A stretch of 64,000 nucleotides of DNA, taken from contig OX345641.1 in assembly GCA_947044365.1 (NCBI GenBank), positions 3,385,460 through 3,449,459 of the forward strand, in the 5' to 3' direction. Source of the DNA: Petrosia ficiformis (Eukaryota; Porifera; Demospongiae; Haplosclerida; Petrosiidae). How positions within the stretch are numbered: the first letter of the stretch is position 1; every line of letters begins with the position of its first letter. Position numbers and translations under genes: made by a program. The notes beneath the pieces are model-generated. The model ran no database searches, was not told where the DNA came from, and was given only the letters and a program-made list of their open reading frames with translations. Shown here in pieces: positions 2,501 to 63,806 of this stretch.

Positions 2501-2503
2501 AAA

Positions 2504-3489: not shown

Positions 3490-3528
3490 TATGAAGAATT
3501 ATTGTGAAATTGTTATGTGATTTCTTCA

Positions 3529-3566
3529 TATTTATACATATCTTGTAAATAATTATATTCATGAAT
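3529..3566 (-). promoter_or_regulatory. Shared family promoter of copy 1
   Basis: Minus-strand TATAAATA at 3529-3536 and the palindrome ATTCATGAAT at 3557-3566. The spacing matches the other copies. Confidence 0.6.
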
Positions 3567-3587
3567 GTCACATGACAGGAAGTATGT

Positions 3588-3679
3588 CAAGCTGACAAAA
3601 ATTGTGGCATGTACATGTCGTGGGTTCGAATCCCACCTGAGGCAACTCTCATTTTTTCATTTTTCCATTGCCTCAGGTG

Positions 3680-3718
<39 letters not shown>

Positions 3719-3977
3719 ACATCTCTGATAACATCATGTATACATGCTTAGGTTTGGTGTTGGTGTCTTTGGTGGTTTCATTACCCCGGCCTCACCTACT
3801 GCCTAGTATTAAGTTAACCTGTTCTCACTGGCGTATGAGATGTTTGATTCGGACCCTGCCAGCTGAGCTGCCTTGGTAGCTCAGTTGGTAGAGCATCTGT
3901 CTGGAATACAGAGTGTCGTGGGTTCGAATCCCACCTGAGGCAACTCTCATTTTTTCATTTTTCCATTGCCTCAGGTG

Positions 3978-4016
<39 letters not shown>

Positions 4017-4020
4017 ACAT
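3588..4020 (+). repeat. tRNA-derived SINE, truncated copy followed by a full copy
   Basis: A 5'-truncated copy starts at about 3588 inside the T-arm (GTGGGTTCGAATCCCAC) and ends in a (CTTT)n tail. A full copy follows at about 3742-4015: a unique head, a tRNA-like body at 3870-3942, the link CTCATTTTTTCATTTTTCC, an inverted copy of the tRNA end (TTGCCTCAGGTG) and a (CTTT)n tail. Both tails are followed by the same ACATCTCTGATAACATCATG, which fits tandem duplication or target-site reuse. A minus-strand copy lies at 34520-34765. Confidence 0.75.
3870..3942 (+). tRNA. tRNA-like SINE head, pseudo-tRNA with GGA anticodon position
   Basis: It folds as a cloverleaf: acceptor GCCTTGG with CTGAGGC (two G-U pairs), D-arm GCTC/GAGC, anticodon stem TCTGT/ACAGA with loop CTGGAAT, short variable loop, and T-arm GTGGG-TTCGAAT-CCCAC. 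The GGA anticodon would be Ser, yet there is no long variable arm. With the SINE tail this argues for a retroposon promoter, with A and B boxes for Pol III, rather than a working tRNA gene. Confidence 0.6.
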
Positions 4021-4034
4021 CTCTGATAACATCA

Positions 4035-5557: not shown

Positions 5558-6574
5558 CTACTTAACATATATTTCAATTATATCAAGAGGTGTGCCTTCA
5601 TCAGGTAGTCCTTGATCACTACACACCCTCAACTCAATATTGTCAGTAGTAGTCTCATTCAATGTCTTAAGAAACCATGGCGAGTTAGGATTAGTACAAC
5701 AAGTAGACTCAGGTCCATTACAATTCTGTCCATCCCATAGTGGATCATCAGCATAAAGAATGTAAGAATAAGGTGGAGCATTTAAACCTGATTCACAATA
5801 GTAATCACTACCAACAAAAGAAGGAGGAGGAGTTGCAGAACTACTACCATTGTTACATGCACAAACATGTGAAGAAAAGTATGTTTCATACAATCCTCCA
5901 GCATAAGTCCATATATGTTGACGAGGATTATTATTATATGTTATTGAAACACCCTCAACATAATATGAGTCAATGTCACTATTGATAAACGCACTAGGTG
6001 AACGGTACTGGTATCCTCTTACTTGTCCACATACTTTGGTGTATTTTAGACTATATGTGGAAAAGAAGGTTGAATAACAACCTCCTGATGAAGGATTAGG
6101 TTGTCCACAAACATCATGATTGATATTGATATATCCTGTTTGTGTTAATCCAGAGGGACAAGTAGTACCGGGTTCAGTCATGTTGAGGTAAGCCACTCTT
6201 GTCCATCCTCCTCCTTCATCACAGTTCATCCCCTCCATGTCACAATAGACAGTGACAATACTTCCATTAGTCAGTGTGATATTGTAATATCCTGATTTAC
6301 ATGTAGCATCAGGATTAGCTTTATATATATCTGCACAGGAAGACTTGTAGAACTGGAAACAAGAAGCTGGTAGGTAAGAGGGGCAAATAATAAACGTAAG
6401 TCGCTTTCCATTTTCAATCTTGAAAGTATTTCCAATATTACCAAGATTACAACAATGTTGTTCATATAGTGAGGGTTGACGTTGACTATTACAATCACTC
6501 ATACAGTAGTTATCCTCTCCATTACTGACAGTAATTAGTTCAGTAATCAGAATTACAAGTATTATAAGATACAT
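5558..6574 (-). CDS. Secreted fibrinogen-like protein, copy 2, family reference
   Basis: A 338-aa single-exon gene. Residues 1-19 are a signal peptide (MYLIILVILITELITVSNG). A Cys-rich stretch follows (CMSDC ... EQHCC). Residues about 65-130 resemble the N-terminal part of a fibrinogen C-terminal domain: a Cys, SGYYNITL, VYCDMEG and GGWTRV. The remaining two thirds carry the blocks CGQVRGY, DSYYVEGVSITY, PRQHIW, FVGSDYYCESG, DPLWDG, STCCTNP and IEIYVK, a pattern I associate with secreted fibrinogen-like or intelectin-like proteins of sponges and cnidarians (from memory). Several N-x-S/T sites fit an extracellular glycoprotein. Carbohydrate or microbe recognition is a guess from the family, not shown here. 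Loop 1 is TYAGGLYETYFSSHV, followed by CACN where paralogues have CPCN; loop 2 is LNAPPYSYILYA. The start is chosen by the signal peptide and its fixed distance from the TATA box. Confidence 0.85.
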   Translation of the reverse strand: MYLIILVILITELITVSNGEDNYCMSDCNSQRQPSLYEQHCCNLGNIGNTFKIENGKRLTFIICPSYLPASCFQFYKSSCADIYKANPDATCKSGYYNITLTNGSIVTVYCDMEGMNCDEGGGWTRVAYLNMTEPGTTCPSGLTQTGYININHDVCGQPNPSSGGCYSTFFSTYSLKYTKVCGQVRGYQYRSPSAFINSDIDSYYVEGVSITYNNNPRQHIWTYAGGLYETYFSSHVCACNNGSSSATPPPSFVGSDYYCESGLNAPPYSYILYADDPLWDGQNCNGPESTCCTNPNSPWFLKTLNETTTDNIELRVCSDQGLPDEGTPLDIIEIYVK

Positions 6575-11221: not shown

Positions 11222-12099
11222 CTCTGTAGACTCAGGTCCATTACAGTTTTGTCCATCCCAGAGTGGATCATCCGCAAAACAATTAAAGAATCAGGTGCAG
11301 CATTTAAAGCTGATTCACAATAGTAATGATTACCAACAAAAGAAGGAGGAGGAGGTGCAGAACTACCACTGTTACATGGACCACCACAACTATCTAGGCG
11401 TGTTTCAACCCATCCTCCTATTATCCTATATATGTCCAGATATGTTGACGAGGATTTCTACCATAAGTTATTGAAACACCATCAACATAATGTGAGTCAA
11501 TGTTACTAGTTCCTGTGTTAAAACTGGTATCCCCTTATTTGTCCACATACTTTGGTGTAATTTAGATTATAGGTGGAAAAGATGATTGAGTCACAACCTG
11601 CTCCAGAACATCCACAAACATCATGATTGATATCGATATATCCTGTTTGTGTTAATTCAGAAGGACAATTAGTACCAGGTTCAGTCATGTTGAGATAAGC
11701 CACTCTTGTCCATCCTCCCTCTTCATCACAGTTGATCCCCTCCATGTCACAATAGACAGTGACAATACTTCCATTAGTCAGTGTGATATTGTAATATCCT
11801 GATGTAGCACTGGGATAAACTTGATGTATATCTGCACAGGAGGATAAAATTGTAGAACTGGAAACAAGAAGTTGGTAGGTAGGAGGGACAAATGATGAAC
11901 GTACATAACTTACCATTTTAAACTTGATAGTATTTCCAATATTACCAAGATTACAACAATGTTGTTCATATAGTGAGGGTTGACGTTGACTATTACAATC
12001 ACTCATACAGTAGTTATCCTCTTCATTACTGACAGTAATTAGTTCAGTAGTCAGAATTACAAGTATTATAAGATACAATATGAAGAATTATTGTGAAAT

Positions 12100-16243: not shown

Positions 16244-17251
16244 TTACTTAACATATATTTCAATTATATCCAGAGGTGTGCCTTCATCAGGTAGCGACTG
16301 ATCGTTACACACTCTCAATTCAATATTATCAGTAATAGTCTCATCTAATGTCTTAAGAAACCATGGTATGTTAGGATTAGTACAACAAGTAGACTCAAGT
16401 CCATTACAATTCTTTCCATCCCATAGTGGATCATCAGCATAAAGAATGGAAGTCCAAGGTGCAACATTTAAACCTGATTCACAATAGTAATCATTACCAA
16501 CAAAAGAAGGAGTAGATGCAGCACTACCATTGTTACATGGACAATGAACTGAATCTATGAATGTTTCAGTCAATCCTGCTGCATATGTCCATATGTGTTG
16601 ACGAGGATTATTACCATACGTTATTGAAACACCATCAACATAATATGAGTCAATGTCAATGCCAACGAAAAAAGCATCAGGTGAATTAAACTGATAACCT
16701 CTCACTTTTCCACAGATTTTGGTGTAATTTAGACTATAGGTGGAGAAGAAGGTTGAGTCACAACCTCCTGATGAAGGATTAGGTTGTCCACAAACATCAT
16801 GATTGATATTGATATATCCTGTTTGTGTTAATCCAGAGGGACAAGTAGTACCAGGTTCAGTCATATTGAGGTTGGCCACTCTTGTCCATCCTCCTTCTTC
16901 ATCACAGTTGATCCCCTCCATGTCACAATAAACAGTTGCAATATTTCTATTAGTCAGTGTGATATTGTAATATCCTGATGTAGCACTGGGAAAAACTTGA
17001 TGTATTTGTAGACAAGAATAATTGTAGAACTGGAAACAAGAATTTGGCAGGTTGGAGGGACAAATGATGAACGTACGTAACTTTCCATCTTTAAACTTGA
17101 TAGTATTTCCAATATTTGTGAGATTACAACAATGTTGTTCATATAGTGAGGGTTGACGTTGACTATTACAATCACTCATACAGTAGTTATCCTCTCCACT
17201 ACTGACAGTAGTTAGTTCAGTAATCAGAATTACAAGTATTATAAGATACAT
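16244..17251 (-). CDS. Secreted fibrinogen-like protein, copy 4
   Basis: 335 aa, intact, single exon. Landmarks: signal peptide 1-19; Cys cluster 24-42; fibrinogen-like core about 80-130 with SGYYNITL, VYCDMEG (108-113) and GGWTRV (120-125); CGKVRGY at 180-186; PRQHIW at 216-221; CPCN at 237-240; DPLWDG at 274-279; IEIYVK at the end. Loop 1 (222-236) is TYAAGLTETFIDSVH and loop 2 (261-272) is LNVAPWTSILYA. It is the copy with TNRNIATVYC where most have TNGSIVTVYC, which removes one N-x-S site. About 15 substitutions scattered near PRQHIW separate it from copy 5. Confidence 0.85.
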   Translation of the reverse strand: MYLIILVILITELTTVSSGEDNYCMSDCNSQRQPSLYEQHCCNLTNIGNTIKFKDGKLRTFIICPSNLPNSCFQFYNYSCLQIHQVFPSATSGYYNITLTNRNIATVYCDMEGINCDEEGGWTRVANLNMTEPGTTCPSGLTQTGYININHDVCGQPNPSSGGCDSTFFSTYSLNYTKICGKVRGYQFNSPDAFFVGIDIDSYYVDGVSITYGNNPRQHIWTYAAGLTETFIDSVHCPCNNGSAASTPSFVGNDYYCESGLNVAPWTSILYADDPLWDGKNCNGLESTCCTNPNIPWFLKTLDETITDNIELRVCNDQSLPDEGTPLDIIEIYVK

Positions 17252-19206: not shown

Positions 19207-20217
19207 CTACTTAACATATATTTCAATTATATCCAGAGGTGTGTCTTCATCAGGTAGCCCTTGACTATTACACACTCTCAACTCGATATTATCAGTAGTA
19301 GTCTTATTCAATGTCTTAAGAAACCATGGCATGTTAGGATTAGTACAACAAGTAGACTCAGGTCCATTACAATTCTGTCCATCCCATAGTGGATCATCAG
19401 CATAAAGAATGTAGGAATAAGCTTTGTTACCTACAGCTGATTCACAATAGTAATCATTACCAACAAAAGAAGGAGGAGGAAGTGCAGAACTACCACTGTT
19501 ACATGGACAACCCCCTGAACTTAGGCGTGTTTCATACCACCCTCCTGATAATGTCCATATGTGTTGACGAGGATTACTACCATATGTTATTGAAACACCA
19601 TCAACATAATATGAGTCAATGTCGCTAGTTCCTATGCGAAAAGCATCAGGTGAAAAATACTGGTATCCTCTTACTTGTCCACATACTTTGGTGTAATTTA
19701 GACTATAGGTGGAGAAGAAGGGTGAGTCACAACCTGCTGATGATGGATTAGGTTGTCCACAAACATCATGATTGATATTGGTATATCCTGTTTGTGTTAA
19801 TCCAGAGGGACAAGTAGTACCAGGTTCAGTCATGTTGAGATAAGCCACACTTGTCCATCCTCCCTCTTCATCACAGTTCATCCCCTCCATGTCACAATAG
19901 ACAGTGACAATACTTCCATTAGTCAGTATATTGTAATATCCTGATGTAGCACTGGGATAAACTTGATGTATTTGTAGACAAGAATATTTGTAGACCTGGA
20001 AACAAGAAGTTGGTAGGTAGGAGGGACAAATAATGAACATATATCGATTTCCATTTTCAATCTTGAAGGTATTTCTGATGTAACTGAGATTACAGCAATG
20101 TTGTTCATATAGTGAGGGTTGACGGGGACTATTACAATCACTCATACAGTAGTTATCCTCTCCATTACTGACAGTAATTAGTTCAGTAATCAGAATTACA
20201 AGTATTATAAGATACAT
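19207..20217 (-). CDS. Secreted fibrinogen-like protein, copy 5
   Basis: 336 aa, intact. It differs from the family consensus by SPRQPS for SQRQPS, a one-residue deletion in the core (GYYNILTN for GYYNITLTN, which removes an N-glycosylation site) and TSVAYLN for TRVAYLN. Loop 1 is TLSGGWYETRLSSGG and loop 2 is AVGNKAYSYILYA, preceded by CES. The signal peptide and all cysteines are present. Its 3' flank (about 19000-19206) is nearly identical to that of copy 6, pointing to a recent duplication of the 3' half. Confidence 0.85.
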   Translation of the reverse strand: MYLIILVILITELITVSNGEDNYCMSDCNSPRQPSLYEQHCCNLSYIRNTFKIENGNRYMFIICPSYLPTSCFQVYKYSCLQIHQVYPSATSGYYNILTNGSIVTVYCDMEGMNCDEEGGWTSVAYLNMTEPGTTCPSGLTQTGYTNINHDVCGQPNPSSAGCDSPFFSTYSLNYTKVCGQVRGYQYFSPDAFRIGTSDIDSYYVDGVSITYGSNPRQHIWTLSGGWYETRLSSGGCPCNSGSSALPPPSFVGNDYYCESAVGNKAYSYILYADDPLWDGQNCNGPESTCCTNPNMPWFLKTLNKTTTDNIELRVCNSQGLPDEDTPLDIIEIYVK

Positions 20218-22644: not shown

Positions 22645-23655
22645 CTACTTAACATATATTTCAATTATATCCAGAGGTGTGTCTTCATCAGGTAGCCCTT
22701 GATTATTACACACCCTCAACTCGATATTATCAGTAGTAGTCTCATTCAATGTCTTAAGAAACCATGGCATGTTAGGATTAGTACAACAAGTAGACTCAGG
22801 CCCATTACAATTCTGTCCATCCCAAAGTGGATCATCAGTATAAAGAATTGAAGAAAAAGGTGGAGCATTTAAACCTGATTCACAATAGTAATCATTACCA
22901 ACAAAAGAAGGAGGAGATGCAGAACTACCATTGTTACATGGACAACCATTTCCACTTAGGTGTGTTTCATACTGCCCTCCTGATAATGTCCATATGTGTT
23001 GACGAGGATTACTACCATATGTTATTGAAACACCATCAACATAATATGAGTCAATGTCACTACTTTCTGTGTTAAAAGCATCAGGTGAACGATAGTCATA
23101 TCCTCTCACTTGCCCACATAATTTGGTGTAATTTAGACCATAGGTGGAAAATAAGGTTGAGTCACAAACTCCTGATGAAGTATTAGGTCGTCCACAAACA
23201 TGATGATTGAGATTGTTATATCCTGTTTGTGTCAATCCAGAGGGACAAGTAGTACCAGGTTCCGTCATGTTGAGGTAAGTTACTCTTGTCCATCCTCCTT
23301 CTTCATCACAGTTCATCCCCTCCATGTCACAATAGACAGTTGCAATACTTCCATTAGTCAGTGTGATATTGTAATATCCTGATTTAACATCAGGATTAGT
23401 TTTATATATATCTGCACAGGAAGACTTGTAGAACTGAAAACAAGAAGTTGGTAGGTAGGAGGGACAAATGATGAATGTAAGTTGGTTTCCTTTTTCAATC
23501 TTGAAAGTATTTCCAATATTATCAGGATTACAACAATGTTGTTCATATAGTGAGGGTTGACGTTGACTATTACAATCACTCATACAGTAGTTATCCTCTC
23601 CATTACTGACAATAATTAGTTCAGTAATCAGAATTACAAGTATTATAAGATACAT
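22645..23655 (-). CDS. Secreted fibrinogen-like protein, copy 6
   Basis: 336 aa, intact. The N-terminal half resembles copy 2 (YKSSCADIYKTNPDVKSGYY, the rarer CADIYK version of the CLQIHQ segment), while the C-terminal half and 3' flank resemble copy 5 (TLSGGQYETHLSGNG, then CPCN; PDEDTPLDIIEIYVK). This mosaic suggests gene conversion or unequal crossing-over between copies. Loop 2 is LNAPPFSSILYT. The change HDVCG to HHVCG and loss of one Gly/Cys pair context (SSGVCDST) are private to this copy. Confidence 0.85.
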   Translation of the reverse strand: MYLIILVILITELIIVSNGEDNYCMSDCNSQRQPSLYEQHCCNPDNIGNTFKIEKGNQLTFIICPSYLPTSCFQFYKSSCADIYKTNPDVKSGYYNITLTNGSIATVYCDMEGMNCDEEGGWTRVTYLNMTEPGTTCPSGLTQTGYNNLNHHVCGRPNTSSGVCDSTLFSTYGLNYTKLCGQVRGYDYRSPDAFNTESSDIDSYYVDGVSITYGSNPRQHIWTLSGGQYETHLSGNGCPCNNGSSASPPSFVGNDYYCESGLNAPPFSSILYTDDPLWDGQNCNGPESTCCTNPNMPWFLKTLNETTTDNIELRVCNNQGLPDEDTPLDIIEIYVK

Positions 23656-34519: not shown

Positions 34520-34765
34520 TGATATTATCAAGAAAGAAAGAAAGAAAGACACCTGAGGCAATGGAAAAATGAAAAATGAGAGTTGCCTCAGGTGGGATTC
34601 GAACCCACGACACACTGTACTCCAGACAGATGCTCTACCAACTGAGCTACCAAGGCAGCCCAGCTGGCAGGGTCCAAATTAAGGCTTAATCAAATACTAG
34701 GCATTAGGTGAAGGCCGGGGTAATGAAACCACCAAAGCACCAACACCAACCTAAGCATTATATAC
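34520..34765 (-). repeat. tRNA-derived SINE, minus strand copy
   Basis: Full-length relative of 3742-4015: head (TAGGTTGGTGTTGGTGCTTT), tRNA body at 34656-34584, the TTGCCTCAGGTG inverted end and a short (CTTT)n tail. ATGATATTATCAAGAAAGAA flanks both ends, marking a target duplication or tail reuse. It sits in PREP intron 2. Confidence 0.7.
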
Positions 34766-38363: not shown

Positions 38364-39368
38364 CTACTTAACATATATTTCAATTATATCCAGAGGTGTA
38401 TCTTCATCAGGCAGCCCATCATTGTTACACACCCTCAACTCAATATTATCAGTAGTAGTCTCATCCAATGTCTTAAGAAACCATGGTATGTTAGGATTAG
38501 TACAACAAGTAGACTCAGGTCCATTGCAATTCTGTCCATCCCATAGTGGATCATCAGCACAAAAAAGTTCACAAGGAATACTACCAAAGCCTGATTCACA
38601 ATAGTAATCATTACCAACAAAAGAAGGAGGGGATGCAGAATTACCACTGTTACATGGACAACCATGTGAATCTAGGCGTGTGTCCCGCTCTCCTGCTACA
38701 TATGTCCATATGTGTTGACGAGGATTACTACCATATGTTATTGAAACACCATCAACATAATATGAGTCAATTTCACTATTTCCTATGGCAAAAGCATCAG
38801 GAGAACGATACTGGTATCCTCTCACTTGTCCACACACTTTAGTATAATTTAGACTATGGGTAGAAAAGAATGTTGAGTCACAACCTCCTGATGAAGGATT
38901 AATATGTCCACAAACATCATGATTGATATTGATATATCCTGTTTGTGTCAATCCAGAGGGACAAGTAGCACCAGGTTCAGTCATGTTGAGATAAGCCACT
39001 CTTGTCCATCCTCCCTCTTCATCGCAGTTGATCCCCTCCATGTCACAATAGACAATGACAATACTTCCATTAGTCAGTGTGATATTGTAATATCCTGATG
39101 TGGCACTAGGATAAACTTGATGGATTTGTGAACAAGAATTATTGTAGACCTCGAAACAAGAATTTGGTAGGTAGGAGGGACAAATGATGAACGTACGTAA
39201 CTTTCCAGTTTTAAACTTGATAGTATTTCCCATATTACTGAGATTACAACAATATTGTTCATATAGTGAGGGTTGACGTTGACTATTACAATCACTCATA
39301 CAGTAGTTATCCTCTCCATTACTGACAATAATTAGTTCAGTACTCAGAATTAGTATTATAAGATACAT
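38364..39368 (-). CDS. Secreted fibrinogen-like protein, copy 8
   Basis: 334 aa, open throughout with the usual signal peptide (MYLIILILSTELIIVSNG). It is the most divergent copy at the binding-loop positions: loop 1 is TYVAGERDTRLDSHG and loop 2 is FGSIPCELFCA, with two extra cysteines that could form a private disulfide. CGHINPSSGG replaces CGQPNPSSGG. The shared promoter module is absent: homology to other copies stops about 8 bp before the ATG, where the THAP/DDE transposon sequence begins. The coding region therefore looks functional but its expression is doubtful. Confidence 0.8.
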   Translation of the reverse strand: MYLIILILSTELIIVSNGEDNYCMSDCNSQRQPSLYEQYCCNLSNMGNTIKFKTGKLRTFIICPSYLPNSCFEVYNNSCSQIHQVYPSATSGYYNITLTNGSIVIVYCDMEGINCDEEGGWTRVAYLNMTEPGATCPSGLTQTGYININHDVCGHINPSSGGCDSTFFSTHSLNYTKVCGQVRGYQYRSPDAFAIGNSEIDSYYVDGVSITYGSNPRQHIWTYVAGERDTRLDSHGCPCNSGNSASPPSFVGNDYYCESGFGSIPCELFCADDPLWDGQNCNGPESTCCTNPNIPWFLKTLDETTTDNIELRVCNNDGLPDEDTPLDIIEIYVK

Positions 39369-47919: not shown

Positions 47920-48060
47920 CACAGGAAAACAGCTCCCTGTGGACGGTTCAGACATTCCTCGTCATAACGAGTGGTAGACTGGTAGAAACAAGCACGTTGT
48001 CCGTGTACCGGACGCCCACACACAAGATCGACTGAACGGTCTCCCGCAGCCGCCGTCCGC
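47920..48060. repeat. Left terminal and subterminal repeat region
   Basis: TIR CACAGGAAAAC, then TGTGGACGG, TTGTCCGTG, ACCGGACGCC and CGCCGTCCGCG. In CACTA elements such subterminal repeats bind the TnpA-type protein (family knowledge). Confidence 0.7.
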
Positions 48061-48135
48061 GATTTGAATAATGTTAATAATTTAATAATTAATAATTTAA
48101 TAATTAATAATTTAATAATTATTTATTCACGCTTT

Positions 48136-51100
48136 ATGGAGATGGAGACTAATCCAAGAAAAGGGACTAAACGACCAAGATCGCTTTTAGACTGCCCTCA
48201 CTGTGGCAAGAAGGTATCTAAATCGACGTTTTACAATCATAGACGAGATTATTATGATGTTTTCACCAAGAAATGGTGTACAAATGAGATAAAGAGCACT
48301 CTTACAGAATGTGTTGGTAAGTTAGTCATAGTCCTATATCATTACAATAGAATAACAATAATAATTATTATAGACTTAATTTGTTTCATTATTATAATTA
48401 TAGGCAATGAAGTTAGCTCTAGTTCTGGAAGTTCAGACCAGAATAATTGTACTAATGACGAGAAGGAAAATGATTTCTTTGATGGTTCCAGTGCTGAAGG
48501 TATAAATTAAAGTACATAAAGAAGATGTTTACTGTGTAATCAATATACAGGAGAAGGCTGTAGTATGCAAGACGGAGAGCTAATGGATGGAAACAATGTT
48601 ATTGATAGAAATGTTTCAGTGCATCAAGTGGTAATCAATAAATAAGCTTGTATTATGTATAATACCCTTATATTATAATTACGTAGGGTTGCTTTGATGA
48701 TGTAGAGATGTGGGATGAAGATGACGATACTGAAACTGTTCCGACAGATGAAGTCGAAGGTATTGGCACTGATAGGAGAGTTGATAAGCAGTTTATAATA
48801 GAGAAAGGACTACACTGCTTGCTGCTACCACTCATTCTATGGCATTCAGTTTTTCGTCTTTCCGATGGTGCTGGAAATTCATTAATGAAAATTATTTCTG
48901 CATTTTTGCATATTTTAGCTTCTTTGCTAAACAGCAATACTTTGAAAGGAATCGCTTCCAAGTTTCCTTTAACAATGAAAAGTTTGCTGAAAAAAATCAA
49001 ATTCAATATTGAGAGTATGTACTCCATTTTTGCTGTCTGTTCATCATGCCATGCAGTCTATCCACTTCAATATTTTGATGACAGTAAAACTAGCAGTTAC
49101 TCTGAAGTAAATAAATGTTCTTTTGTAGCTTTTCCAGAGCATCCTTACACCTCTATGAGAAAACCATGTAATACCATTTTGATGAAAAAGGTAACTTACA
49201 GAAAAAGTGGGAAAATGGAGTTGAAGCCTATTAAGCCTTATGTGTATCAATCTTTGACATATGCCTTTGGGAAGTTATTAAGCAGGCAAGGGTTTCTTGA
49301 TATGTGTCAACATTGGAGAAAGAGGAAAGTACCAAATCGTTTCCTGGGTGATGTTTATGATGGTAAATTTTGGAAAACTTTTCAAGGATTTGATGGTGTA
49401 GCTTTCAGTTGTAGCACATATAACTTAATGGTGAGTTTAAATGTAGACTGGTTTCAACCTTATAAACACACTACACATTCTGTGGGAGTAATATATTTGG
49501 TGACATTGAATTTACCAAGAGCAATTAGATATCGCATTGAAAATATTATATTAGTAGGTATAATTCCAGGTCCTAAAGAACCCCCATTATCATTAAATTC
49601 GTATCTGGGACCAATGGTAGAAGAACTACAGGAATTTTGGTATGGAAAAAAAGTGAATTTAGAAAAAGGTGGTTCTATATTTATACGACTTGCCATAGCA
49701 TTCATATCTTGTGATATTCCAGCTCTGAGAAAGGTCACAGGATTTATTGGTCATGCTGCACATTTAGGTTGCTCTAGATGTTTAAAATATTTTGATACTG
49801 TAAATGGAAAGTTAAGTTATAGTGGTTTTGATCGTTCGTCTTGGACTGTGAGAAGCAATGAACAGCACCGAGCAAGCTGCCAGGAGCTCAGATTAGCAAA
49901 GACTAAAACTCAACTGCATGAATTGGAAATGAAACTTGGTGTTCGTTATTCCATATTGCTTGACCTACCTTATTTTGACCCAGTTAGGTTTTCAACAATT
50001 GATCCCATGCACAATTTATTGTTAGGTACAGCAAAATATTTGTTAAGATTATGGATAGATAAAGGAATTTTGAGCAGTGAAAATATTCGTGCCATCGAAA
50101 AGTGTGTTTCACTCATTCATTGTCCATTAGATATAGGAAGACTTCCACTGAAGATTGGGTCTGGGTTTGCTGGGTTTACTGCTGCACAGTGGCGTTATTG
50201 GATCACTATATATTCTCCCATTGCATTAAAAGGTGTTATTCCCACAGAACACTTGAATTGTTGGTTACTTTTTGTACGAGCATGTACTATACTTTGTGCC
50301 CAAGTTGTAACTATTAGTGATGTAGAAACTGCAGATCAATACTTAGCATTATTCTGTGAAAGGTATGAAGTACTGTATGGGTTAGAATGTTGCACGATCA
50401 ATATGCATATGCATTTGCATCTAAAGGAATGCATTTTAGATTATGGACCATCTCCTAGCTTTTGGTGCTTCTCATTTGAACGCTTCAATGGAATATTAGG
50501 TTCCTATCCAACTAATAATAAATCTGCTGAAGAACAGTTGATGAGGAGATTCCTTAGAGAGCAGTACATAAAGAGCCTGAAGTGTGAAATTGATGATCCT
50601 ACATTGAAATCAGTAGTTCATGAATTACAAGGAGATAACATCATTGCATTTCACAGTGTCGAGGAAGTTTTAGATATAATGGAACTTTCCAAGCTTAAAT
50701 TACCAACAACCGTCAACTTCACAAAAAGAGCTTCCCTTTCATTTGCTGTAGACGAGAATAATGATGCAATATTAAATATAATTCCACCATTCTATGAAAA
50801 AGTATTCAGTAGTGACTGCTACAAAGACCTTGAGACACTATATCACAAGCTATATTCAGAAATACAAATTGTTGAGATAACTAGATTTTATACTCTCTTT
50901 AAAAAAGTTGCAGTTTGTGGACAACTTATAACGTCAGCTGATTCCGTCAGTGAAACATCAAATGTTATTATGGCTAATTGGTCAATAAAAGAACAATCGA
51001 TGTCTGGGGAACATATTGGTCAAGTTCAATACTTTCTTAAACATGCAATTATTTGCGACATTAATGGAATCGTTAGAAAATTTGAACATGTTTTTGCATA

Positions 51101-51314
51101 TATTCACTGGTATAAAGAACATAGATTTAGAAATTGGTTTGGTACTTCAGCTGTTGTTTCACAAACGGTATCCGAAGAGAGTGGTCCATTTTGTTTTTTA
51201 CCTGTCCAAAGAATACAGTGTAGGTGTGCACATGGTATTATGGATGTTAACTTTCCTTCTGGATTTGAACATGTACATGTAGCATGTCCAATTCTATATA
51301 ATGGTGTGTTATAG
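48136..51314 (+). CDS. EnSpm/CACTA-type transposase (Tnp2-like), four exons
   Basis: Exons 48136-48316, 48404-48499, 48551-48630 and 48687-51314; phases agree and the spliced product is 994 aa. The N-terminus has a zinc-finger-like CPHCGKKVSKSTFYNHRR (residues about 20-37), then an acidic/Ser-rich linker (exons 2-3). The large exon carries Tnp2 (Transposase_21-type) hallmarks: SLNVDWFQPYKH (about 369-380), ISCDIPA (about 459-465), the CSRC knuckle (about 481-484), FSTIDPMHNLLLG in the middle, and FWCFSFERFNGILGSY with NMHMHLHLKEC further on. The aspartates of these blocks are candidates for the DDE catalytic set. The ATG at 48136 is preferred over an upstream in-frame one because the stretch before it is low-complexity AATAATTTAATAATT. 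All splice sites are GT-AG and introns are 50-90 bp. It probably cuts at the CACAG ends. Confidence 0.85.
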
Positions 51315-51507
51315 AAAAAAGGTTTAGTGAATTGATCACATGCAAAGATTTTTAACAAGAAAATTTTTGTTAGGTTACTAATTTATAAGTACAGTATACA
51401 ATAAGAAAAAAACAACATTGAAATCATACTTAATTAACACCTAGGATACAAAATGAACTTTACTACATACATTATGTCATCACCAATTAATACAGTAAGA
51501 AGTAAGT

Positions 51508-52569
51508 CTACAAAATTCTTTCAAAGTTTTTTAGTATCTGTTGAGATGTTACACGACAACTTGGAAAAAGAACAGTACTAGATGTGATAATATTATCTAG
51601 GACACGATCACAAATACTGACTTTACCTGTCAGATCTTGAAGAAATTTTCCATATGCATATATGTCACTTGCTCTTGACAGGGGACAGTCTCCTGAGCAT
51701 ACTTCTGGGGGAAGATGAGGGTTCATCTTCTCAAAGAACTGTGCTTCCTTTAATGATGGGTGGGTGTACTTGCTACCTTTTGTTGCATCGGTGGCATTCC
51801 CAAAATCTGTCAGCACTATATTATATTGACAGTTTAGGGAGCTTGAGGTGGCTTTATTTATAAGAACATTATTGGCTTTCACATCATTATGAATAATATT
51901 TACTGTATAGTGCAAATAGTCGATGGCCTCGATCAATTGAGCACTCATTGCCAACCAGTTTCCTGATGTTATATGTAACACAGACTCAGCTAACTGCTTA
52001 CCTACACAAATGGACATCATTCCAACTCCATGAAACTGCGTAACTAGAAAGTAAGGTGCAACATCAATATTGTATCCAAACAGAAGTGGTAGGTATGGAT
52101 GCGAACATTTAGATAGAACATGAGCTTCTTGAGCTACATCTGCTACTATTGTCCGAGGAAAGAACTCCTTTACTGCTACATGTATCCCATGATACAGTTG
52201 CAGTTTGACAGCTGAGAAGCTTCCTCGTCCAACATAGGCAGAGTCCATTTGATGTTGAGGATCTTGAAGATCGCTTAAGATGATTGTACGTATTTTGTGG
52301 TTATCAGTAGGGCACTTTGCATCATATACAACATTAGCCCCTCTCTTCCTTTGGTCCAATTCATGTCTCCACCTGCGCCAGAAAGATGTGGCTATATTTT
52401 TCAATTCTTTATCTTGTAGATCTACTGATGTACCATTGGTTGATTCCTCAGGTTTTGATTTCAAACTTTTCTTGCGATTTCTCTTCTTTCTCGCAATCCT
52501 TAGTCTACGTTTTTCATCCACAGAGTGCTTTCTAAATTTCTTCCTTGCTGTTACAGATTCCATGCGCAT
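51508..52569 (-). CDS. Protein kinase carried by the CACTA-like transposon
   Basis: 353 aa, single exon. Residues 9-38 are strongly basic (nuclear-localisation-like). The kinase domain follows: glycine loop GRGSFSAV (114-121), VAVK with Lys134, alpha-C Glu148, catalytic loop HNDVKANN (227-234; Asp229, Lys231, Asn234), DFG at 255-257, PPE at 287-289 in place of APE, and the SDIYAYG helix-F motif with Asp302. All residues needed for phosphotransfer are present. HND for HRD makes it a non-RD type, so activation-loop phosphorylation may not be needed. The protein ends soon after helix H/I, giving a compact C-lobe. I cannot name a host family. It lies antisense between the transposase stop and the third gene; its ATG is only 57 bp from that gene's ATG, so the two share a divergent promoter. 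A role in regulating the element's own proteins or the host DNA-damage response is speculation. Confidence 0.85.
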   Translation of the reverse strand: MRMESVTARKKFRKHSVDEKRRLRIARKKRNRKKSLKSKPEESTNGTSVDLQDKELKNIATSFWRRWRHELDQRKRGANVVYDAKCPTDNHKIRTIILSDLQDPQHQMDSAYVGRGSFSAVKLQLYHGIHVAVKEFFPRTIVADVAQEAHVLSKCSHPYLPLLFGYNIDVAPYFLVTQFHGVGMMSICVGKQLAESVLHITSGNWLAMSAQLIEAIDYLHYTVNIIHNDVKANNVLINKATSSSLNCQYNIVLTDFGNATDATKGSKYTHPSLKEAQFFEKMNPHLPPEVCSGDCPLSRASDIYAYGKFLQDLTGKVSICDRVLDNIITSSTVLFPSCRVTSQQILKNFERIL

Positions 52570-52626
52570 GCTGCAATTAATGGGGAGGGACCAGTAATTT
52601 AACTAATTTTATTTCCCGTGTTTCTA
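52570..52626. promoter_or_regulatory. Divergent promoter between kinase and coiled-coil gene
   Basis: Only 57 bp separate the two ATGs (52569 minus, 52627 plus). The interval contains ATTAATGGGGAGGGACC and an AT-rich half (AACTAATTTTATTT). The core promoter must overlap the 5' ends of both genes. Confidence 0.5.
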
Positions 52627-53961
52627 ATGGCAGAAGGTTCTTCTAGAAGCCCGTACCACAACTACACTTCATCTTCAACAAGGCATTTGCCGTCTAATTT
52701 CTACACTTCCAACAGGTCTTCGCTTACTGGACCGTCAGGGGGGGACAATGAAAAATTGGATGTGATAATCTCACAACTATCAGAACAACGAGAAACCATG
52801 ATTGTAAATCAAGAAAAGGGTGATGCTGTGTTGGATTTAGTGCAGGAATTATCCTCAACTGTATCTATACTTCAAAGTGACTTAGAAACTGTTAGGAATG
52901 AAGTTAGTGCATTGAAGACAGCTAATCAAGCTTCGTTTACTAAGAAGCAGAAACAGGTTCCAAGATATGTTTCAGTAAGATATATAACTGTTATACAGTT
53001 TTAGTAATTATAATATCCAGTGGAGTATATAGGAAGATGAAAAATTATTGGGTGGGGGGGGAGTTAGGGCAACAACGCTATGCTATTTGTTGTAATAATT
53101 GCAACAGTTATTGTTATAATTATATATAATGATAAGGTGATTCACTAGCATGACAAAATATTTGCTGTCTTTCATGTCTTCCTATGAACTCTTCGCTATA
53201 TGTCGGTAATGTCTGTTTTCCAGCATTGATCTTTCTTCTTTTTACCTGTGCCAGCTTGTCTGACTGTCATGTGCTATCAATGAGTGTGAACAATTTTCAG
53301 CTGTAAATTATCTTACCTGCATTGAAATCTTCACACTTCGATGAATCTTCACAATCCAAGTAACGCAAGCCAATGTAGTAATTATTGTGTATATTTGCTT
53401 TTAGTTATAGGGACGGGGGAGGCAGCCACCATCTCCTTGCTTAAAATATATATCACTCACATAATTTTATAGTTTTGTAATTATGATTCATCATTATGTT
53501 CATTTCAGAAATTTTTATGGGTACTACATGACAACTCTGAAGAACAGTTCAATGCTGAAGAACTGTAAGTATTGGGTTGATTCAGTCTTTAAATAAAAAT
53601 TTTTGTGCATGTTTACAGGAATTATCACATACTTGCCATGATGATAATTATTGTGCTTCACTAAAATTCATCAAAATTTATTAGTCATTATCAGTTATTA
53701 CCATGTACTTTTTATGTTGCAATTAATTTCTTTGTCGTCAGATACCATTCAGACAGTAATAAAAACGTTGCAGCAACTCTCATGACACAGCTACAGTTGA
53801 AGTATCCTAAAGAAGATCTCTGCTTATTACAAAGTATCAGAAATTATTTTATAGGCTTATGAATTTAAAAATACATTTGTGTCTGCATGTGCTGTTGATA
53901 TATATATGTCTGTATATGCTGTTGATATATATATATATATATAATTATAAAAATAAAATAT

Positions 53962-53995
<34 letters not shown>

Positions 53996-54072
53996 ATTAT
54001 ATATATATATATATATAATTATATCTAATATATATATATATATATATATATAATTATATATAATTATATATA

Positions 54073-54109
<37 letters not shown>

Positions 54110-56146
54110 TAATTATATATATGTAATATATATTAATATTATATATATATATATATATGTATTATAATTATATATAATTATATATATATATACATATATA
54201 TATACATATGTAGATATAATTATAAAAATATATATTACATATATATAATTATAATTATATATATAAATTATATATATATTATATATTAGATATAATTATA
54301 TATATAATTATACATATGTATACATATGTATATACAATTATAATATATATATATCTACTATATATATTTATATAATTATATATACGTATCGTTGGTCAAG
54401 GTTGTCAAGATGCCTCGTCTTTAGGCAACAACCTGTCAAGATGTTTCGTCTTTAGACAGGTGACCATTTTGTGTTTGTTGTGTATGTTGGTCAAGGTTGT
54501 CAAGATGCCTCGTCTTTAGGCAACAACCTGTCAAGATGTTTCGTCTTTAGACAGGTGACCATTTTGTGTTTGTTGTGTATGTTGGTCAAGTTTGTCAAGA
54601 TGCCTCGTCTTTAGGCAACAAACTGTCAAGATGTTTCGTCTTTAGACAGGTGACCATTTTGTGTTTGTTGTGTATGTTGGTCAAGGTTGTCAAGATGCCT
54701 CGTCTTTAGGCAACAACCTGTCAAGATGTTTCGTCTTTAGACAGGTGACCATTTTGTGTTTGTTGTGTATGTTGGACAAGGTTGTCAAGATGCCTCGTCT
54801 TTAGGCAACAAACTGTCAAGATGTTTCGTCTTTAGACAGGTGACCATTTTGTGTTTGTTGTGTATGTTGGTCAAGGTTGTCAAGATGCCTCGTCTTTAGG
54901 CAACAACCTGTCAAGATGTTTCGTCTTTAGACAGGTGACCATTTTGTGTTTGTTGTGTATGTTGGTCAAGGTTGTCAAGATGCCTCGTCTTTAGGCAACA
55001 ACCTGTCAAGATGTTTCGTCTTTAGACAGGTTACCATTTTGTGTTTGTTGTGTATGTTGGTCAAGGTTGTCAAGATGCCTCGTCTTTAGGCAACAACCTG
55101 TCAAGATGTTTCGTCTTTAGACAGGTGACCATTTTGTGTTTGTTGTGTATGTTGGTCAAGGTTGTCAAGATGCCTCGTCTTTAGGCAACAACCTGTCAAG
55201 ATGTTTCGTCTTTAGACAGGTGACCATTTTGTGTTTGTTGTGTATGTTGGTCATGGTTGTCAAGATGTTTTATAGTATTTTGTGCACAAATTTGTTTCAC
55301 TGTTCTCATTAACTTTCTTTAATGTTGTAGAACCCGAATTGTGAAGAACTCCTAGAAGAATAGCTATGAATCTGTATTGTAATCATATATTTGTTTAATC
55401 TATTTCACTTTCAAATCTTTACACAGATGTTACATATACTTGTGATTTGAGAGAAGCTGCCAATTTATGAGAATGTTTCTATGATTTTCGGTTTTAGATA
55501 TTAACAATATTACTCAGCTTATTTATTTCTATGTAGAAGCAATTCATCGTTACTATGAATCACGACGGAGAGTTTTTAATGACTCAAAAGTTGAAAGAAA
55601 AGATAAAGTGGAAGAAAACAGAAAGAAAGATAAGAAAAGACAAGCTCAGCTGAGGGTATGTAAATATTCTTTTTGACGTCATCTATTTGTTTTTTATAGC
55701 TTTATTCTCGTCGTAAACGAGCTATTAAAACATCAAAAGAAAGGGAGTACTTTGAACAGCTTAACCATGTTCATATGTCTGAAGAGGAAGATGATGATGT
55801 GGATGGTAAAATTAAAATTACTCCTGGATGGTGCTCTCAAAGTAAGTTTACATTTTACACATGCTCAATTATATCTAATACCGTTTACTGTCTAGGTTTT
55901 AAAAAACTGAAAGAAAAGTTGGATTCTCGAGTTAACCAGACTTCAACAGTGACAGGAAGATTTCAAGCAGCTGTACTATCAAAAGCTGCTGTAGGATCAG
56001 TTGTTTTCCCTGATGGTACTCCATCTTGGGCAGTTGACCCTCAATACAGAACAATGGAAGATGAAGATGAAAATGAAAAGGAAGAAAGTTTTTCATCTAA
56101 TGTAGATTTAGAGTCTCCTTGGGAACTTAGTGACACTGACAAGTAA
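52627..56146 (+). CDS. Coiled-coil, TnpA-like second protein of the CACTA-like element
   Basis: Six exons in consistent phase: 52627-52974, 53509-53564, 53742-53833, 55537-55655, 55700-55841 and 55896-56146, giving 335 aa. Residues 1-40 are Ser/Tyr/Asn-rich. About 42-100 form a coiled coil (KLDVIISQLSEQRETMI ... LQELSS-type heptads ... LETVRNEVSALK). Exons 4-5 encode a long basic helix (YYESRRRVFNDSKVERKDKV ... KKDKKRQAQLR, LYSRRKRAIKTSKERE), a likely DNA-binding segment. The last exon has FQAAVLSKAAVGSVVFPDGT then PSWAVDP, and ends in an acidic tail (DEDENEKEE). There is no catalytic motif. By position and composition it fits the TnpA role of CACTA elements, binding subterminal repeats; this is inference. 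The third intron (1.7 kb) holds the AT tract and 95-bp minisatellite. An alternative exon near 55331 would stop after about 10 codons. Confidence 0.75.
53915..54388. repeat. AT-rich tract in the element's long intron
   Basis: About 470 bp composed of TATA and ATAATTATA runs, self-complementary at many scales. It lies directly before the 95-bp minisatellite. Confidence 0.85.
54391..55270. repeat. 95-bp minisatellite, nine copies and a partial one
   Basis: Exact 95-bp spacing (54391, 54486, 54581 ... 55151, partial at 55246). Each unit holds two stem-loops built from the same phrase: GCCTCGTCTTTAGGC, and CTGTC ... GTTTCGTC ... GACAG, plus an outer pairing AGGTTGT/ACAACCT. Copies are almost identical, with single changes (for example TTACC for TGACC near 55031), so the array has been homogenised recently. 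Confidence 0.9.
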
Positions 56147-56389
56147 CTATTTATTAAAAAATTAATACTTATTGTTCTTATGAATCTTCATATATTCACT
56201 CTCAAGTGTATATAATTAAAATACACGTCAATTTTCTTGTACATAGTTATATATATAACTTTGATGTTTTTTTCATTTTATAAATCGATATTCATTAATT
56301 TGATGATGGTCAAGTACGCGCGTTACGTATATAATTATAACAATTAATTAATTTATTTATTACGCGTGTATATACGTACGTACGTACGT

Positions 56390-56569
56390 GGCATGCCATG
56401 GACGGCCCCGTTGTCATCGATGTAGACGGAGTATATCCGTCTCTTATTGGTCCAAGTGCGTAGCCGTACACGGACGTCTTAGCGGACCGTCCTCAATCCG
56501 TCATTCGTGGCTGGACGTCGTAAAGACGATTGATGAACTGCTCAGTCCACAAGATCCAGTTTTCCTGTG
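56390..56569. repeat. Right subterminal repeats and terminal inverted repeat
   Basis: It contains GGACGGCCCC, GTAGACGGAG, ATCCGTCTC, ACACGGACGTC, GCGGACCGTCC, ATCCGTCATT, CTGGACGTCG and AAAGACGATT, then GTCCACAAGATCCAGTTTTC and CTGTG at the end. More repeats lie here than on the left. Confidence 0.7.
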
Positions 56570-58362: not shown

Positions 58363-59364
58363 TTACTTCACATATATTTCAATTATATCCAGAGGTGTGT
58401 CTTCATTCGATAACCCTTCATTACCACACACCCTTAACTCAATATTATCAGTAGTAGTCTCATTCAATGTCTTAAGAAACCATGGCATGTTAGGATTAGT
58501 ACAACAAGTAGACTCAGGTCCTTTACAATTCTGTCCATCCCATAGTGGATCAAAAGGATAAAGAATGTAAGACCAAGAGCTATATGTACCTGATTCACAA
58601 TAGTAATCATTACCAACAAAAGAAGGAGGAAGAGGTGCATAACTACCACTGTTACGTGGACAACCCCATAAACCTAGGTGTGTTTCAGCCCATCCTCCTA
58701 TATATGTCCAGATATGTTGACGAGGATTACTACCATATGTTATTGAAACACCATCAACATAATATGAGTCAATGTTACTAGTTCCTGTGTTAAAACCATC
58801 AGGTGTGCCAAACTGGTATCCTCTCACTTGTCCACAAACTTTAGTGTAATTTAGACCATAGGTGGAAAAGATGGTTGAGTCACAACCTGCTCCAGAACGT
58901 CCACAAACATCATGATTGATATTACTATATCCTCTTTGAGTCAATCCAGAGAGACAAGTAGTACCAGGTTCAGTCATGTTGAGATCAGCCACTCTTGTCC
59001 ATCCTCCCTCTTCATCACAGTTGATCCCCTCCATGTCACAATAGACAGTGACAATACTTCCATTAGTCAGTGTGATATTGTAACATCCTGATATAGCACT
59101 GGGAAAAACTTGATGTATTTGTGGACAAGAATTATTGTAGAACTGGAAACAAGATTTTGGTAGGTCAGAGGGACAAATGATGAACGTAAGTTGGTTTCTT
59201 TTCTGAATCTTGAAAGTATTTCTGATATTACCGAGATTACAACAATGTTGTTCATATAGTGAGGGTTGACATTGACTATTACAATCACTCATACAGTAGT
59301 TATCCTCTCCATTACTGACAGTAATAAGTTCAGTAATCAAAATTACAAGTATTATAAGATACAT
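58363..59364 (-). CDS. Secreted fibrinogen-like protein, copy 10
   Basis: 333 aa, intact. It has the shorter CGRSGAGCDST segment shared with copies 3 and 12 in place of CGQPNPSSGGCDST. Loop 1 is TYIGGWAETHLGLWG and loop 2 is TYSSWSYILYP. The conserved CPCN is CPRN here, so one cysteine of a presumed disulfide is lost. It also has CLSGLTQRGY and NSQCQPS for NSQRQPS, adding a cysteine near the N-terminus. The open frame and good promoter argue it is expressed, but folding may be affected. Confidence 0.85.
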   Translation of the reverse strand: MYLIILVILITELITVSNGEDNYCMSDCNSQCQPSLYEQHCCNLGNIRNTFKIQKRNQLTFIICPSDLPKSCFQFYNNSCPQIHQVFPSAISGCYNITLTNGSIVTVYCDMEGINCDEEGGWTRVADLNMTEPGTTCLSGLTQRGYSNINHDVCGRSGAGCDSTIFSTYGLNYTKVCGQVRGYQFGTPDGFNTGTSNIDSYYVDGVSITYGSNPRQHIWTYIGGWAETHLGLWGCPRNSGSYAPLPPSFVGNDYYCESGTYSSWSYILYPFDPLWDGQNCKGPESTCCTNPNMPWFLKTLNETTTDNIELRVCGNEGLSNEDTPLDIIEIYVK

Positions 59365-62758: not shown

Positions 62759-63766
62759 TTACTTAATACATATTTCAATTATATCCAGAGGCGTGTCTTC
62801 ATTCGATAACACTTCATCACCACACACTCTCAACTCAATATCATCAGTAGTTATCTCATTCAATGTCTTAAGAAACCATGGCATGTTAGGATTAGTACAA
62901 CAAGTAGACTCAGGTCCATTACAATTCTGTCCATCCCATAGTGGATCATCAACATAACGAATTGAACTAGAAGTTAAATCATTTGAACCTGATTCACAAT
63001 AGTAATCATTACCAACAAAAGAAGGAGGAGGAGGTGCAAAACTACCATTGTTACATGGACAACCCCAAACATCTACTCGTAATTCAACCCATCCAGCTAC
63101 ATATGTCCAGATATGTTGACGAGGATTACTACCATAAGTTATTGAAACACCATCAACATAATATGAGTCAATGTTACTAGTTCCTGTGTTAAAACCATCA
63201 GGTGTACCAAACTGGTATCCCCTTATTTGTCCACATACTTTGGTGTAATTTAGACTATAGGTGGAAAAGATGATTGAGTCACAACCTGCTCCAGAACGTC
63301 CACAAACATCATGATTGATATCGATATATCCTGTTTGTGTTAATCCAGAGGGACAAGTAGTACCAGGTTCAGTCATGTTGAGGTAAGCTACTCTTGTCCA
63401 TCCTCCCTCTCCATCACAGTTGATCCCCTCCATGTCACAATAGACAGTGACAATATTTCCATTAGTCAGTGTGATATTGTAATATCCTGAGGTAGCACTA
63501 GGATAAACTTGATGTATTTGCAGACAAGAAGCATAATTGTAGAACTGGAAACAAGAATTTGGCAGGTTGGAGGGACAAATGATGAATGTACGTAACTTTC
63601 CATTTCTAAACTTGATAGTATTTCCAATATTTGTGAGATTACAACAATGTTGTTCATATAGTGAGGGTTGACGTTGACTATTACAATCACTCATACAGTA
63701 GTTATCCTCTCCATTACTGACAGTAATTAGTTCAGTAACCAGAATTACAAGTATTATAAGATACAT
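62759..63766 (-). CDS. Secreted fibrinogen-like protein, copy 12
   Basis: 336 aa from the conserved MYLIILV start; a further in-frame ATG three codons upstream (63775) is not conserved in paralogues. Loop 1 is TYVAGWVELRVDVWG and loop 2 is SNDLTSSSIRYV. It is the only copy with ELRV in place of ET at that position. It has the short CGRSGAGCDS segment and ends EICIK where others end EIYVK. Copy 3 is its nearest relative by both coding and 3' flank sequence. All core cysteines are present. Confidence 0.85.
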   Translation of the reverse strand: MYLIILVILVTELITVSNGEDNYCMSDCNSQRQPSLYEQHCCNLTNIGNTIKFRNGKLRTFIICPSNLPNSCFQFYNYASCLQIHQVYPSATSGYYNITLTNGNIVTVYCDMEGINCDGEGGWTRVAYLNMTEPGTTCPSGLTQTGYIDINHDVCGRSGAGCDSIIFSTYSLNYTKVCGQIRGYQFGTPDGFNTGTSNIDSYYVDGVSITYGSNPRQHIWTYVAGWVELRVDVWGCPCNNGSFAPPPPSFVGNDYYCESGSNDLTSSSIRYVDDPLWDGQNCNGPESTCCTNPNMPWFLKTLNEITTDDIELRVCGDEVLSNEDTPLDIIEICIK

Positions 63767-63806
63767 TATGAACAATTATTATGAAATTGTTGCATTAATT
63801 TTTTTC

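What the first reader, a model, noticed from the sequence alone, without database searches (positions are those of the whole stretch)
47920..56569. CACTA/EnSpm-like transposon carrying an apparently active protein kinase
Inside clear terminal inverted repeats sit a Tnp2-type transposase, a TnpA-like coiled-coil gene and, between them in antisense, a 353-aa protein kinase with Lys134, Glu148, Asp229, Asn234 and the DFG Asp255 all in place. I know of no standard CACTA element that encodes a kinase. The open frame, and its position in a shared divergent promoter with the coiled-coil gene, suggest it is part of the element's functional set, for example phosphorylating transposition proteins or host chromatin factors, rather than a passively captured fragment.
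Basis: partly seen in the sequence, partly recalled or inferred. Interest (0 to 1): 0.88.

Follow-up and report, generated by a model that had tools for sequence, protein, structure and literature searches.

The report
Transposon family carrying its own kinase
A jumping gene of the CACTA type carries a complete, apparently working protein kinase that has been kept intact for a very long time in this genome, which suggests that the jumping gene uses the enzyme for its own purposes.

Summary
Window 47920-56569 is a complete CACTA/EnSpm-type element: CACAGGAAAAC termini, 3-bp ATA duplication, Tnp2 transposase with an inferred zinc-finger first exon, an antisense open 353-aa kinase, and a coiled-coil gene starting 57 bp from it. 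The kinase is not a one-off capture. A second complete element on another contig (C1:29802618-29810653; TGA duplication) has the same layout, with open Tnp2 (44% aa) and kinase (36% aa); four-fold sites are near saturation while codon positions 1 and 2 are conserved, so the kinase has been under purifying selection. Three searches of this genome found no other full-length relative except decayed or damaged copies. In public data the kinase forms a large family with its own N-terminus and an HND (not HRD) loop; 6 of 120 listed share an exact contig length with a listed Tnp2 (0.66 expected). It is not universal: a sibling Tnp2 element has another antisense protein in that slot. A precedent exists: fungal IS3EU elements with an alpha-kinase. 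My searches of the held papers listed no CACTA element with a conventional kinase. Activity, expression and substrates are untested; a mirror-tree test failed.

The parts
47920..56569 (+). complete CACTA/EnSpm-type element, 8650 bp, ATA duplication on both sides
   Evidence: same ends found elsewhere in the genome
47920..47945 (+). 5' terminal inverted repeat, CACAGGAAAAC...
56544..56569 (-). 3' terminal inverted repeat
48136..48316 (+). inferred first exon of the transposase gene with a zinc-finger-like motif (CPHCGKKVSKSTFYNH); exon borders read by eye from GT/AG signals, approximate
   Evidence: counterpart in the second element read by eye
48708..51314 (+). Tnp2-type transposase, main open frame, 868 aa (probably the last exon)
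   Evidence: Pfam PF02992 1.5e-14; 926 relatives at E<=1e-3 among 7997 scored
51508..52569 (-). protein kinase, 353 aa: basic helix, long helix, bilobal kinase domain; single open frame
   Evidence: Pfam PF00069 1.4e-20; AlphaFold model mean pLDDT 84.5, most blocks of the kinase domain at 88 or more
52570..52626 (.). 57-bp gap between the divergent start codons of kinase and coiled-coil gene (promoter inferred)
   Evidence: same head-to-head order in the second element
52627..53004 (+). first open frame of the TnpA-like coiled-coil gene
   Evidence: against its counterpart in the second element 15.1 bits, 0 of 1000 shuffles as high, best shuffle 13.4
55775..56146 (+). open frame with an acidic end, probably the last exon of the coiled-coil gene
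   Evidence: similarity to the counterparts weak: 24 of 1000 shuffles as high for the second element, 1 of 1000 for L093
54391..55270 (.). 95-bp tandem array, about nine units, kept in deletion derivatives

Best explanation
This is an autonomous-looking CACTA-type DNA transposon in which a protein kinase is a standing component. SHOWN: complete ends and duplication; open Tnp2; open kinase in antisense, tail-to-tail with Tnp2 and head-to-head with a coiled-coil gene; the same layout in a second, deeply diverged complete element; purifying selection on the kinase between the two; a near-identical kinase-bearing block at a third site. INFERRED: Tnp2 cuts at the CACAG ends; the coiled-coil protein binds and pairs the ends (as TnpA does in maize Spm, recalled); the kinase is held near the element or in the nucleus by its basic helix and coiled coil, and phosphorylates either the element's own proteins or host chromatin/repair proteins so that the element can be expressed or moved. 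The HND loop (no Arg before the catalytic Asp) suggests a 'non-RD' kinase that needs no activating phosphorylation from host signalling (general knowledge, recalled). My split: standing component 0.9; catalytically active 0.75; acts on the element's own transposition proteins 0.35, on host chromatin/repair or silencing factors 0.4.
For: Second complete element C1:29802618-29810653: termini CACGTGAAAAACTC/CACAGGTAATAAACTC, TGA on both sides, borders agreeing with those shared by other copies; Tnp2 frame of 751 aa and kinase of 417 aa open. Codon positions 1/2/3 identity for the two kinases 0.47/0.61/0.34 against 0.26/0.27/0.28 expected at random, four-fold sites 0.37 (49 sites); the Tnp2 pair behaves alike, 0.53/0.66/0.44. 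Kinase against the decayed remnant: dN/dS 0.51, Fisher p=0.005 on back-calculated site totals, as expected if one branch is dead and the other constrained. In three kinase searches of this genome (115 of 131, 104 of 154 and 100 of 153 candidates scored) the full-length matches at 36% or more are the window copy, its 98% copy and the second element; the decayed copies come next, then matches of E 7.6e-14 (28%), 1.5e-22 (38%, two stops) and 9.1e-22 (35%) that lie in the kinase domain. Public data: 309 proteins at E<=1e-3 by profile (best 120 listed); of these 120, 107 have a [WFY]xR[WFY]xxE motif in the first 250 residues against 1 of 36 more distant kinases, 116 contain HND and 0 HRD; 6 of 120 share an exact longest-contig length with one of 120 listed Tnp2 hits, against a mean of 0.66 over 600 shifted comparisons (maximum 4), and 2 above 10 kb against 0 at every shift. 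P0020 joins a zinc-finger-like N-terminus, like that of the transposase's first exon, to the kinase in one frame. A 353-aa protein 99% identical to the window kinase exists in public data (P0001).
Against: No expression, activity or substrate data. Only two kinases in this genome are intact: in the 98% copy a short deletion removes the start codon; the rest are decayed. The 98% copy differs from the window by 3 non-synonymous and 0 synonymous changes, too few to show constraint. The kinase fragment in the deletion derivative has dN/dS 1.12 (88 codons). Distances of kinase and Tnp2 in 8 presumed pairs do not correlate (Mantel r=-0.10, p=0.69): saturation, wrong pairs or swapping. A sibling Tnp2 element lacks a kinase, and other intact Tnp2 frames of this genome have no kinase of this family. 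Contig-length matches are indirect; one of the six (3108 bases) leaves no bases between the two genes and may be chance.
Confidence: 0.7

Rival explanations
1. Exchangeable cargo. The kinase is useful to the element (for instance against host silencing) but is swapped between element lineages, as fungal TET/JBP genes are, rather than inherited with one Tnp2 lineage.
For: Kinase and Tnp2 distances do not correlate in 8 presumed pairs; sibling element L093 has a different antisense protein in the same slot; passive transfer of TET/JBP genes between transposon lineages is reported in PMC12730594 (passages read).
Against: Same antisense position and same neighbours in two elements with Tnp2 at 44% aa. 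Eight saturated pairs give little power.
Confidence: 0.3
2. Passive capture of a host kinase gene, drifting inside the element.
For: CACTA elements are known to carry captured gene pieces (recalled); the 98% copy differs only by non-synonymous changes and has lost its start codon.
Against: Conserved across near-saturating synonymous divergence; open in two complete elements; no stationary host gene with the same N-terminal part found.
Confidence: 0.08
3. A pseudokinase-like scaffold: the kinase fold serves for binding only, since the HRD motif reads HND.
For: HND in 116 of 120 listed members, HRD in 0.
Against: Lys, Glu, catalytic Asp, Asn and DFG Asp are present and invariant or nearly so in the 23-row alignment; loss of the Arg alone does not remove catalysis in known non-RD kinases (recalled).
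Confidence: 0.12
4. Assembly or annotation artefact, or a host kinase gene by chance inside the element span.
For: A real example of chance neighbourhood exists: the kinase near Tnp2 at C1:36851682 is an ordinary HRD kinase.
Against: Near-identical block including kinase and coiled-coil gene at a second site with a different flank; a third site with a diverged complete element.
Confidence: 0.02

Closest known systems
CACTA / En-Spm superfamily (CMC/CMCT group)
   Same: CAC..GTG ends, 3-bp duplication, Tnp2-type transposase, apparently several exons, a second gene; features as described in PMC4158355 and PMC12730594 (passages read)
   Different: carries an antisense conventional protein kinase; the passages I read describe a transposase and an ORF2
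Fungal IS3EU transposons with an alpha-kinase
   Same: a kinase gene opposite in orientation to the transposase inside a DNA transposon (PMC12730594, passage read)
   Different: another transposase superfamily, fungi, and the alpha-kinase family, which is not recognisably related in sequence to conventional protein kinases (recalled)
Fungal EnSpm families with a TET/JBP dioxygenase
   Same: an EnSpm element with an extra enzyme thought to help escape silencing (PMC12730594, passages read)
   Different: dioxygenase instead of kinase
Chondrus crispus EnSpm families with 4-5 ORFs
   Same: EnSpm elements with more than the usual 1-2 ORFs (PMC6431247, passage read)
   Different: no kinase named in the passage; the word kinase does not occur in that paper's main text

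Membership tests
CACTA / En-Spm | termini 5'-CAC..GTG-3' with inverted repeats | tested here: met
   variant CACAG rather than CACTA
CACTA / En-Spm | 3-bp target site duplication | tested here: met
   ATA (window), TAA (C1:28.48 Mb copy), TGA (second element):
CACTA / En-Spm | Tnp2-type transposase | tested here: met
   PF02992 at 1.5e-14, above the curated cut-off
CACTA / En-Spm | DDE triad with C(2)C and H(3-4)H between second D and last E | tested here: inconclusive
   candidate motifs GCSRC, HMHLH and FERFNG seen by eye in the translation; triad not aligned to a characterised transposase
CACTA / En-Spm | TnpA-like second protein | tested here: inconclusive
   coiled-coil open frame, similar to that of the second element; no significant Pfam match; not compared with a known TnpA
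Eukaryotic protein kinase | VAVK Lys, C-helix Glu, catalytic Asp, Asn, DFG | tested here: met
   model
Eukaryotic protein kinase (RD class) | Arg before the catalytic Asp | tested here: not met
   HND in the window and in 116 of 120 listed relatives
Fungal IS3EU with alpha-kinase | alpha-kinase domain | tested here: not met
   Pfam lists Pkinase and PK_Tyr_Ser-Thr, no alpha-kinase among the families shown

The most novel reading that the evidence does not exclude
A widespread clade of CACTA transposons carries a dedicated kinase family, recognisable by its basic/coiled-coil N-terminus and non-RD loop, that phosphorylates transposition proteins or host chromatin to license or time jumping: a phospho-regulated DNA transposon that brings its own kinase.
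Probability: 0.45. Interest if true: 0.85.

Novelty: new variant of a known kind. Interest (0 to 1): 0.66.

Why it matters
Cut-and-paste transposons are usually thought to rely on host kinases for any phospho-control (general knowledge). An element that keeps its own kinase under selection would be a direct handle on how transposons manipulate host cells, and gives a defined protein family whose genomic contexts and substrates can be tested. It also warns that counts of kinases in such genomes may include transposon genes.

Tried and rejected
Related loci in viral contigs (none) and in bacterial/archaeal genome contigs (39 loci at 22-33% identity, all with bacterial titles; taken as generic kinases and not used). 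N-terminal model of 95 kinases against the kinase-less antisense ORF of L093: not above shuffles, so I dropped the idea that the kinase domain was added to that protein. A bZIP reading of the basic helix: no bZIP among the 25 of 27 Pfam families shown for 23 members, dropped. Mirror-tree of 8 presumed pairs: no correlation. The kinase near Tnp2 C1:36851682 is an HRD kinase, not counted. The degenerate kinase near Tnp2 in L050 runs in the same direction as its Tnp2, unlike the pattern here, and is of another type by eye; not counted. The kinase 4 kb from a Tnp2 piece in L049 has two stops; not counted. First end scan of the second element gave chance-like pairs; the ends came from borders shared with other copies. 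Papers: searches listed no CACTA element with a conventional kinase; most subscription papers are not held, so this is not proof of absence.

Full report
WHAT IS THERE. The window lies at G000:C6:3385460-3449459 of a 191-Mb genome in 29 contigs; the species was not identified. The element runs from 47920 to 56569 with CACAGGAAAAC inverted ends and ATA on both sides. It holds a Tnp2 transposase (48708-51314, plus), preceded by what look like small exons, the first with a CPHC..H zinc-finger-like motif; an antisense 353-aa kinase (51508-52569, minus); and a coiled-coil gene starting at 52627, whose last exon is probably in 55775-56146. Inside the span lie an AT-rich stretch and a 95-bp tandem array. 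Exon borders are my reading, not tested.

THE KINASE. Pfam Pkinase E=1.4e-20; the best solved-structure matches include MAP3K9, B-Raf, RAD53, CTR1 and Src-type kinases, none above 39 bits. Lys134, Glu148, Asp229, Asn234 and Asp255 are present; the loop is HND. The AlphaFold model (23 sequences) has mean pLDDT 84.5, a bilobal domain with most blocks at 88 or more, a basic helix at 17-37 and a less certain long helix at 46-79.

COPIES IN THIS GENOME. The kinase protein search gave 66 matches at E<=0.001 (115 of 131 candidates scored), the bulk at about 23-35% identity. Those that matter: C1:30081109-30082143, 98%, in a block matching the element from position 3064 to its 3' end, with a different 3' flank; its 5' part was not found within the 20 kb read, and a short deletion has removed the kinase's start codon, the first Met left in that frame being at residue 107. 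C1:28477178-28482127, a deletion derivative with both ends, TAA duplication and a 265-bp kinase piece at 96%. Two remnants near C1:53.81 and C1:54.64 Mb, about 80% nt to the window and 99% to each other, so one event, with kinase and coiled-coil pieces and stop codons. And C1:29805624-29806877, a 417-aa open kinase.

THE SECOND COMPLETE ELEMENT. That last kinase sits tail-to-tail with an open Tnp2 frame and head-to-head with a coiled-coil frame. In a search with 801 bases over one side, 7 other loci begin at query position 318 or 319, the base before or the first base of its CACAG end. In a search with 1051 bases over the other side, 11 other loci end between query positions 749 and 766, 7 of them at 754, the first base of its CACGTG end. 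The ends, CACGTGAAAAACTC and CACAGGTAATAAACTC, are flanked by TGA on both sides and enclose 8036 bp. Its counterpart zinc finger CLHC..H was read by eye; the stricter pattern did not find it. Codon alignment with the window: Tnp2 44% aa over 730 codons, kinase 36% over 344, coiled coil 34% over 100; the genome search's own identities are 42% and 40%. Four-fold sites of the kinases match at 0.37 while codon positions 1 and 2 match at 0.47 and 0.61, against about 0.27 at random: selection on the protein.

KINASE-LESS ELEMENTS. End searches (11 and 13 matches) show further copies with the same ends, most of them at about 80-90% identity. Apart from the copies named above, none coincides with a kinase or Tnp2 match. 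The one I read (L053) has lost element positions 700 to 5451 and contains a foreign block with helicase-like pieces. One search scored only 52 of 241 candidates, so weak Tnp2 remnants may be missed. By contrast L093 (C1:44896525, Tnp2 42% aa, open) has a zinc finger, Tnp2, an antisense 168-aa protein without kinase domain, a coiled-coil frame and a last acidic frame. That protein has 10 matches in the genome, itself included, one beside another Tnp2, and shows no similarity to the kinase's N-terminus above shuffles. Coiled-coil frames: window against second element 0 of 1000 shuffles as high, against L093 4 of 1000, second element against L093 15 of 1000; last frames 24, 1 and 3 of 1000 in the same order. 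I did not establish the ends of L093. So the antisense slot is variable and the kinase marks a subset of elements.

OUTSIDE THIS GENOME. The kinase has 58 relatives at E<=1e-3 by single-sequence search and 309 by profile (best 120 listed). Of these 120, 107 have the [WFY]xR[WFY]xxE motif against 1 of 36 more distant kinases (P0023-P0058); 116 contain HND, 0 HRD. The Tnp2 has 926 relatives (best 120 listed). No genomic context is given, but 6 of the 120 kinases have exactly the longest-contig length of one of the 120 Tnp2 hits; shifting lengths by 1 to 300 in either direction gives 0.66 on average and at most 4, and above 10 kb 2 against 0 at every shift; 0 of 36 control kinases match. The 3108-base pair leaves no room between the genes and is doubtful. 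P0020, on a 1293-base contig, starts with a zinc-finger-like motif similar to that of the transposase's first exon and continues into the kinase; it is the only one of the 156 kinases scanned that has it. Together this says, indirectly, that kinase and Tnp2 lie together in other genomes too. Kinase and Tnp2 distances in 8 presumed pairs do not correlate (Mantel r=-0.10, p=0.69), and the kinase-linked Tnp2s do not form one clade among the 124 in that tree; this leaves swapping open.

SELECTION AMONG CLOSE COPIES. Window against the 98% copy: 3 non-synonymous, 0 synonymous, plus 15 bases missing in frame near the end of the other copy: uninformative. Against the two remnants dN/dS is 0.51 and 0.47 over 242 codons (p=0.005 for the first, with site totals that I back-calculated). 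Tnp2 against the deletion derivative 0.20 over 420 codons; kinase fragment 1.12 over 88; last frame 0.40 over 118 there and 0.67 over 112 in L053.

WHAT IT PROBABLY DOES. The order, the head-to-head starts and the conservation point to a component of the element. A basic helix plus a long helix in front of the kinase suggests nuclear or chromatin targeting and dimerisation (inference). A non-RD loop suggests independence from host activation (general knowledge). Whether the substrates are Tnp2 and the coiled-coil protein or host factors cannot be told from sequence.

KNOWN OR NEW. Fungal IS3EU elements with an alpha-kinase opposite in orientation to the transposase are in print (PMC12730594, passages). 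EnSpm elements with 4-5 ORFs are known from a red alga (PMC6431247, passage). In eight searches of the held library (listings, plus passages of three papers) I saw no CACTA element with a conventional protein kinase. I therefore call it a new variant of a known kind.

Noticed in passing
window 54391-55270 and 56521-56528: The 95-bp tandem array inside the element holds 18 copies of CGTCTTTA, and the only other copy in the window lies inverted near the element's 3' end (19 found, 0.76 expected). The array survives in copies that lost Tnp2 or kinase parts, as a binding site for the coiled-coil protein might.
   Followed up: partly
L093 5196-5702 (minus): A sibling Tnp2 element has an antisense 168-aa basic protein in the kinase's place; 10 matches in the genome including itself, one beside another Tnp2 (C1:24442957).
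   Followed up: partly
L053 316-5549: A copy with the same ends carries a foreign block with helicase-like pieces (Pfam DEAD 1.1e-8) and lacks its transposase and kinase.
   Followed up: no
L048 4621-5499 (minus), L051 4833-5348 (plus), L050 4696-5606 (minus): Other kinase frames of a different type, by eye with HND or an FGK(A/G)C motif and resembling the coral proteins P0042 and P0051; the L050 one is broken. Possibly kinases of other mobile elements; no context established.
   Followed up: no
window 2504-3442, 5558-6574, 11518-12078, 16244-17251, 19207-20217, 22645-23655, 38364-39368, 58363-59364, 62759-63775 (all minus): Nine related Cys-rich, secreted-looking open frames of 186 to 338 aa on one strand; two tested had no Pfam match at E<=0.01. 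The element sits inside this array.
   Followed up: no
window 3870-3942 and 34584-34656: Two tRNA matches (Rfam).
   Followed up: no
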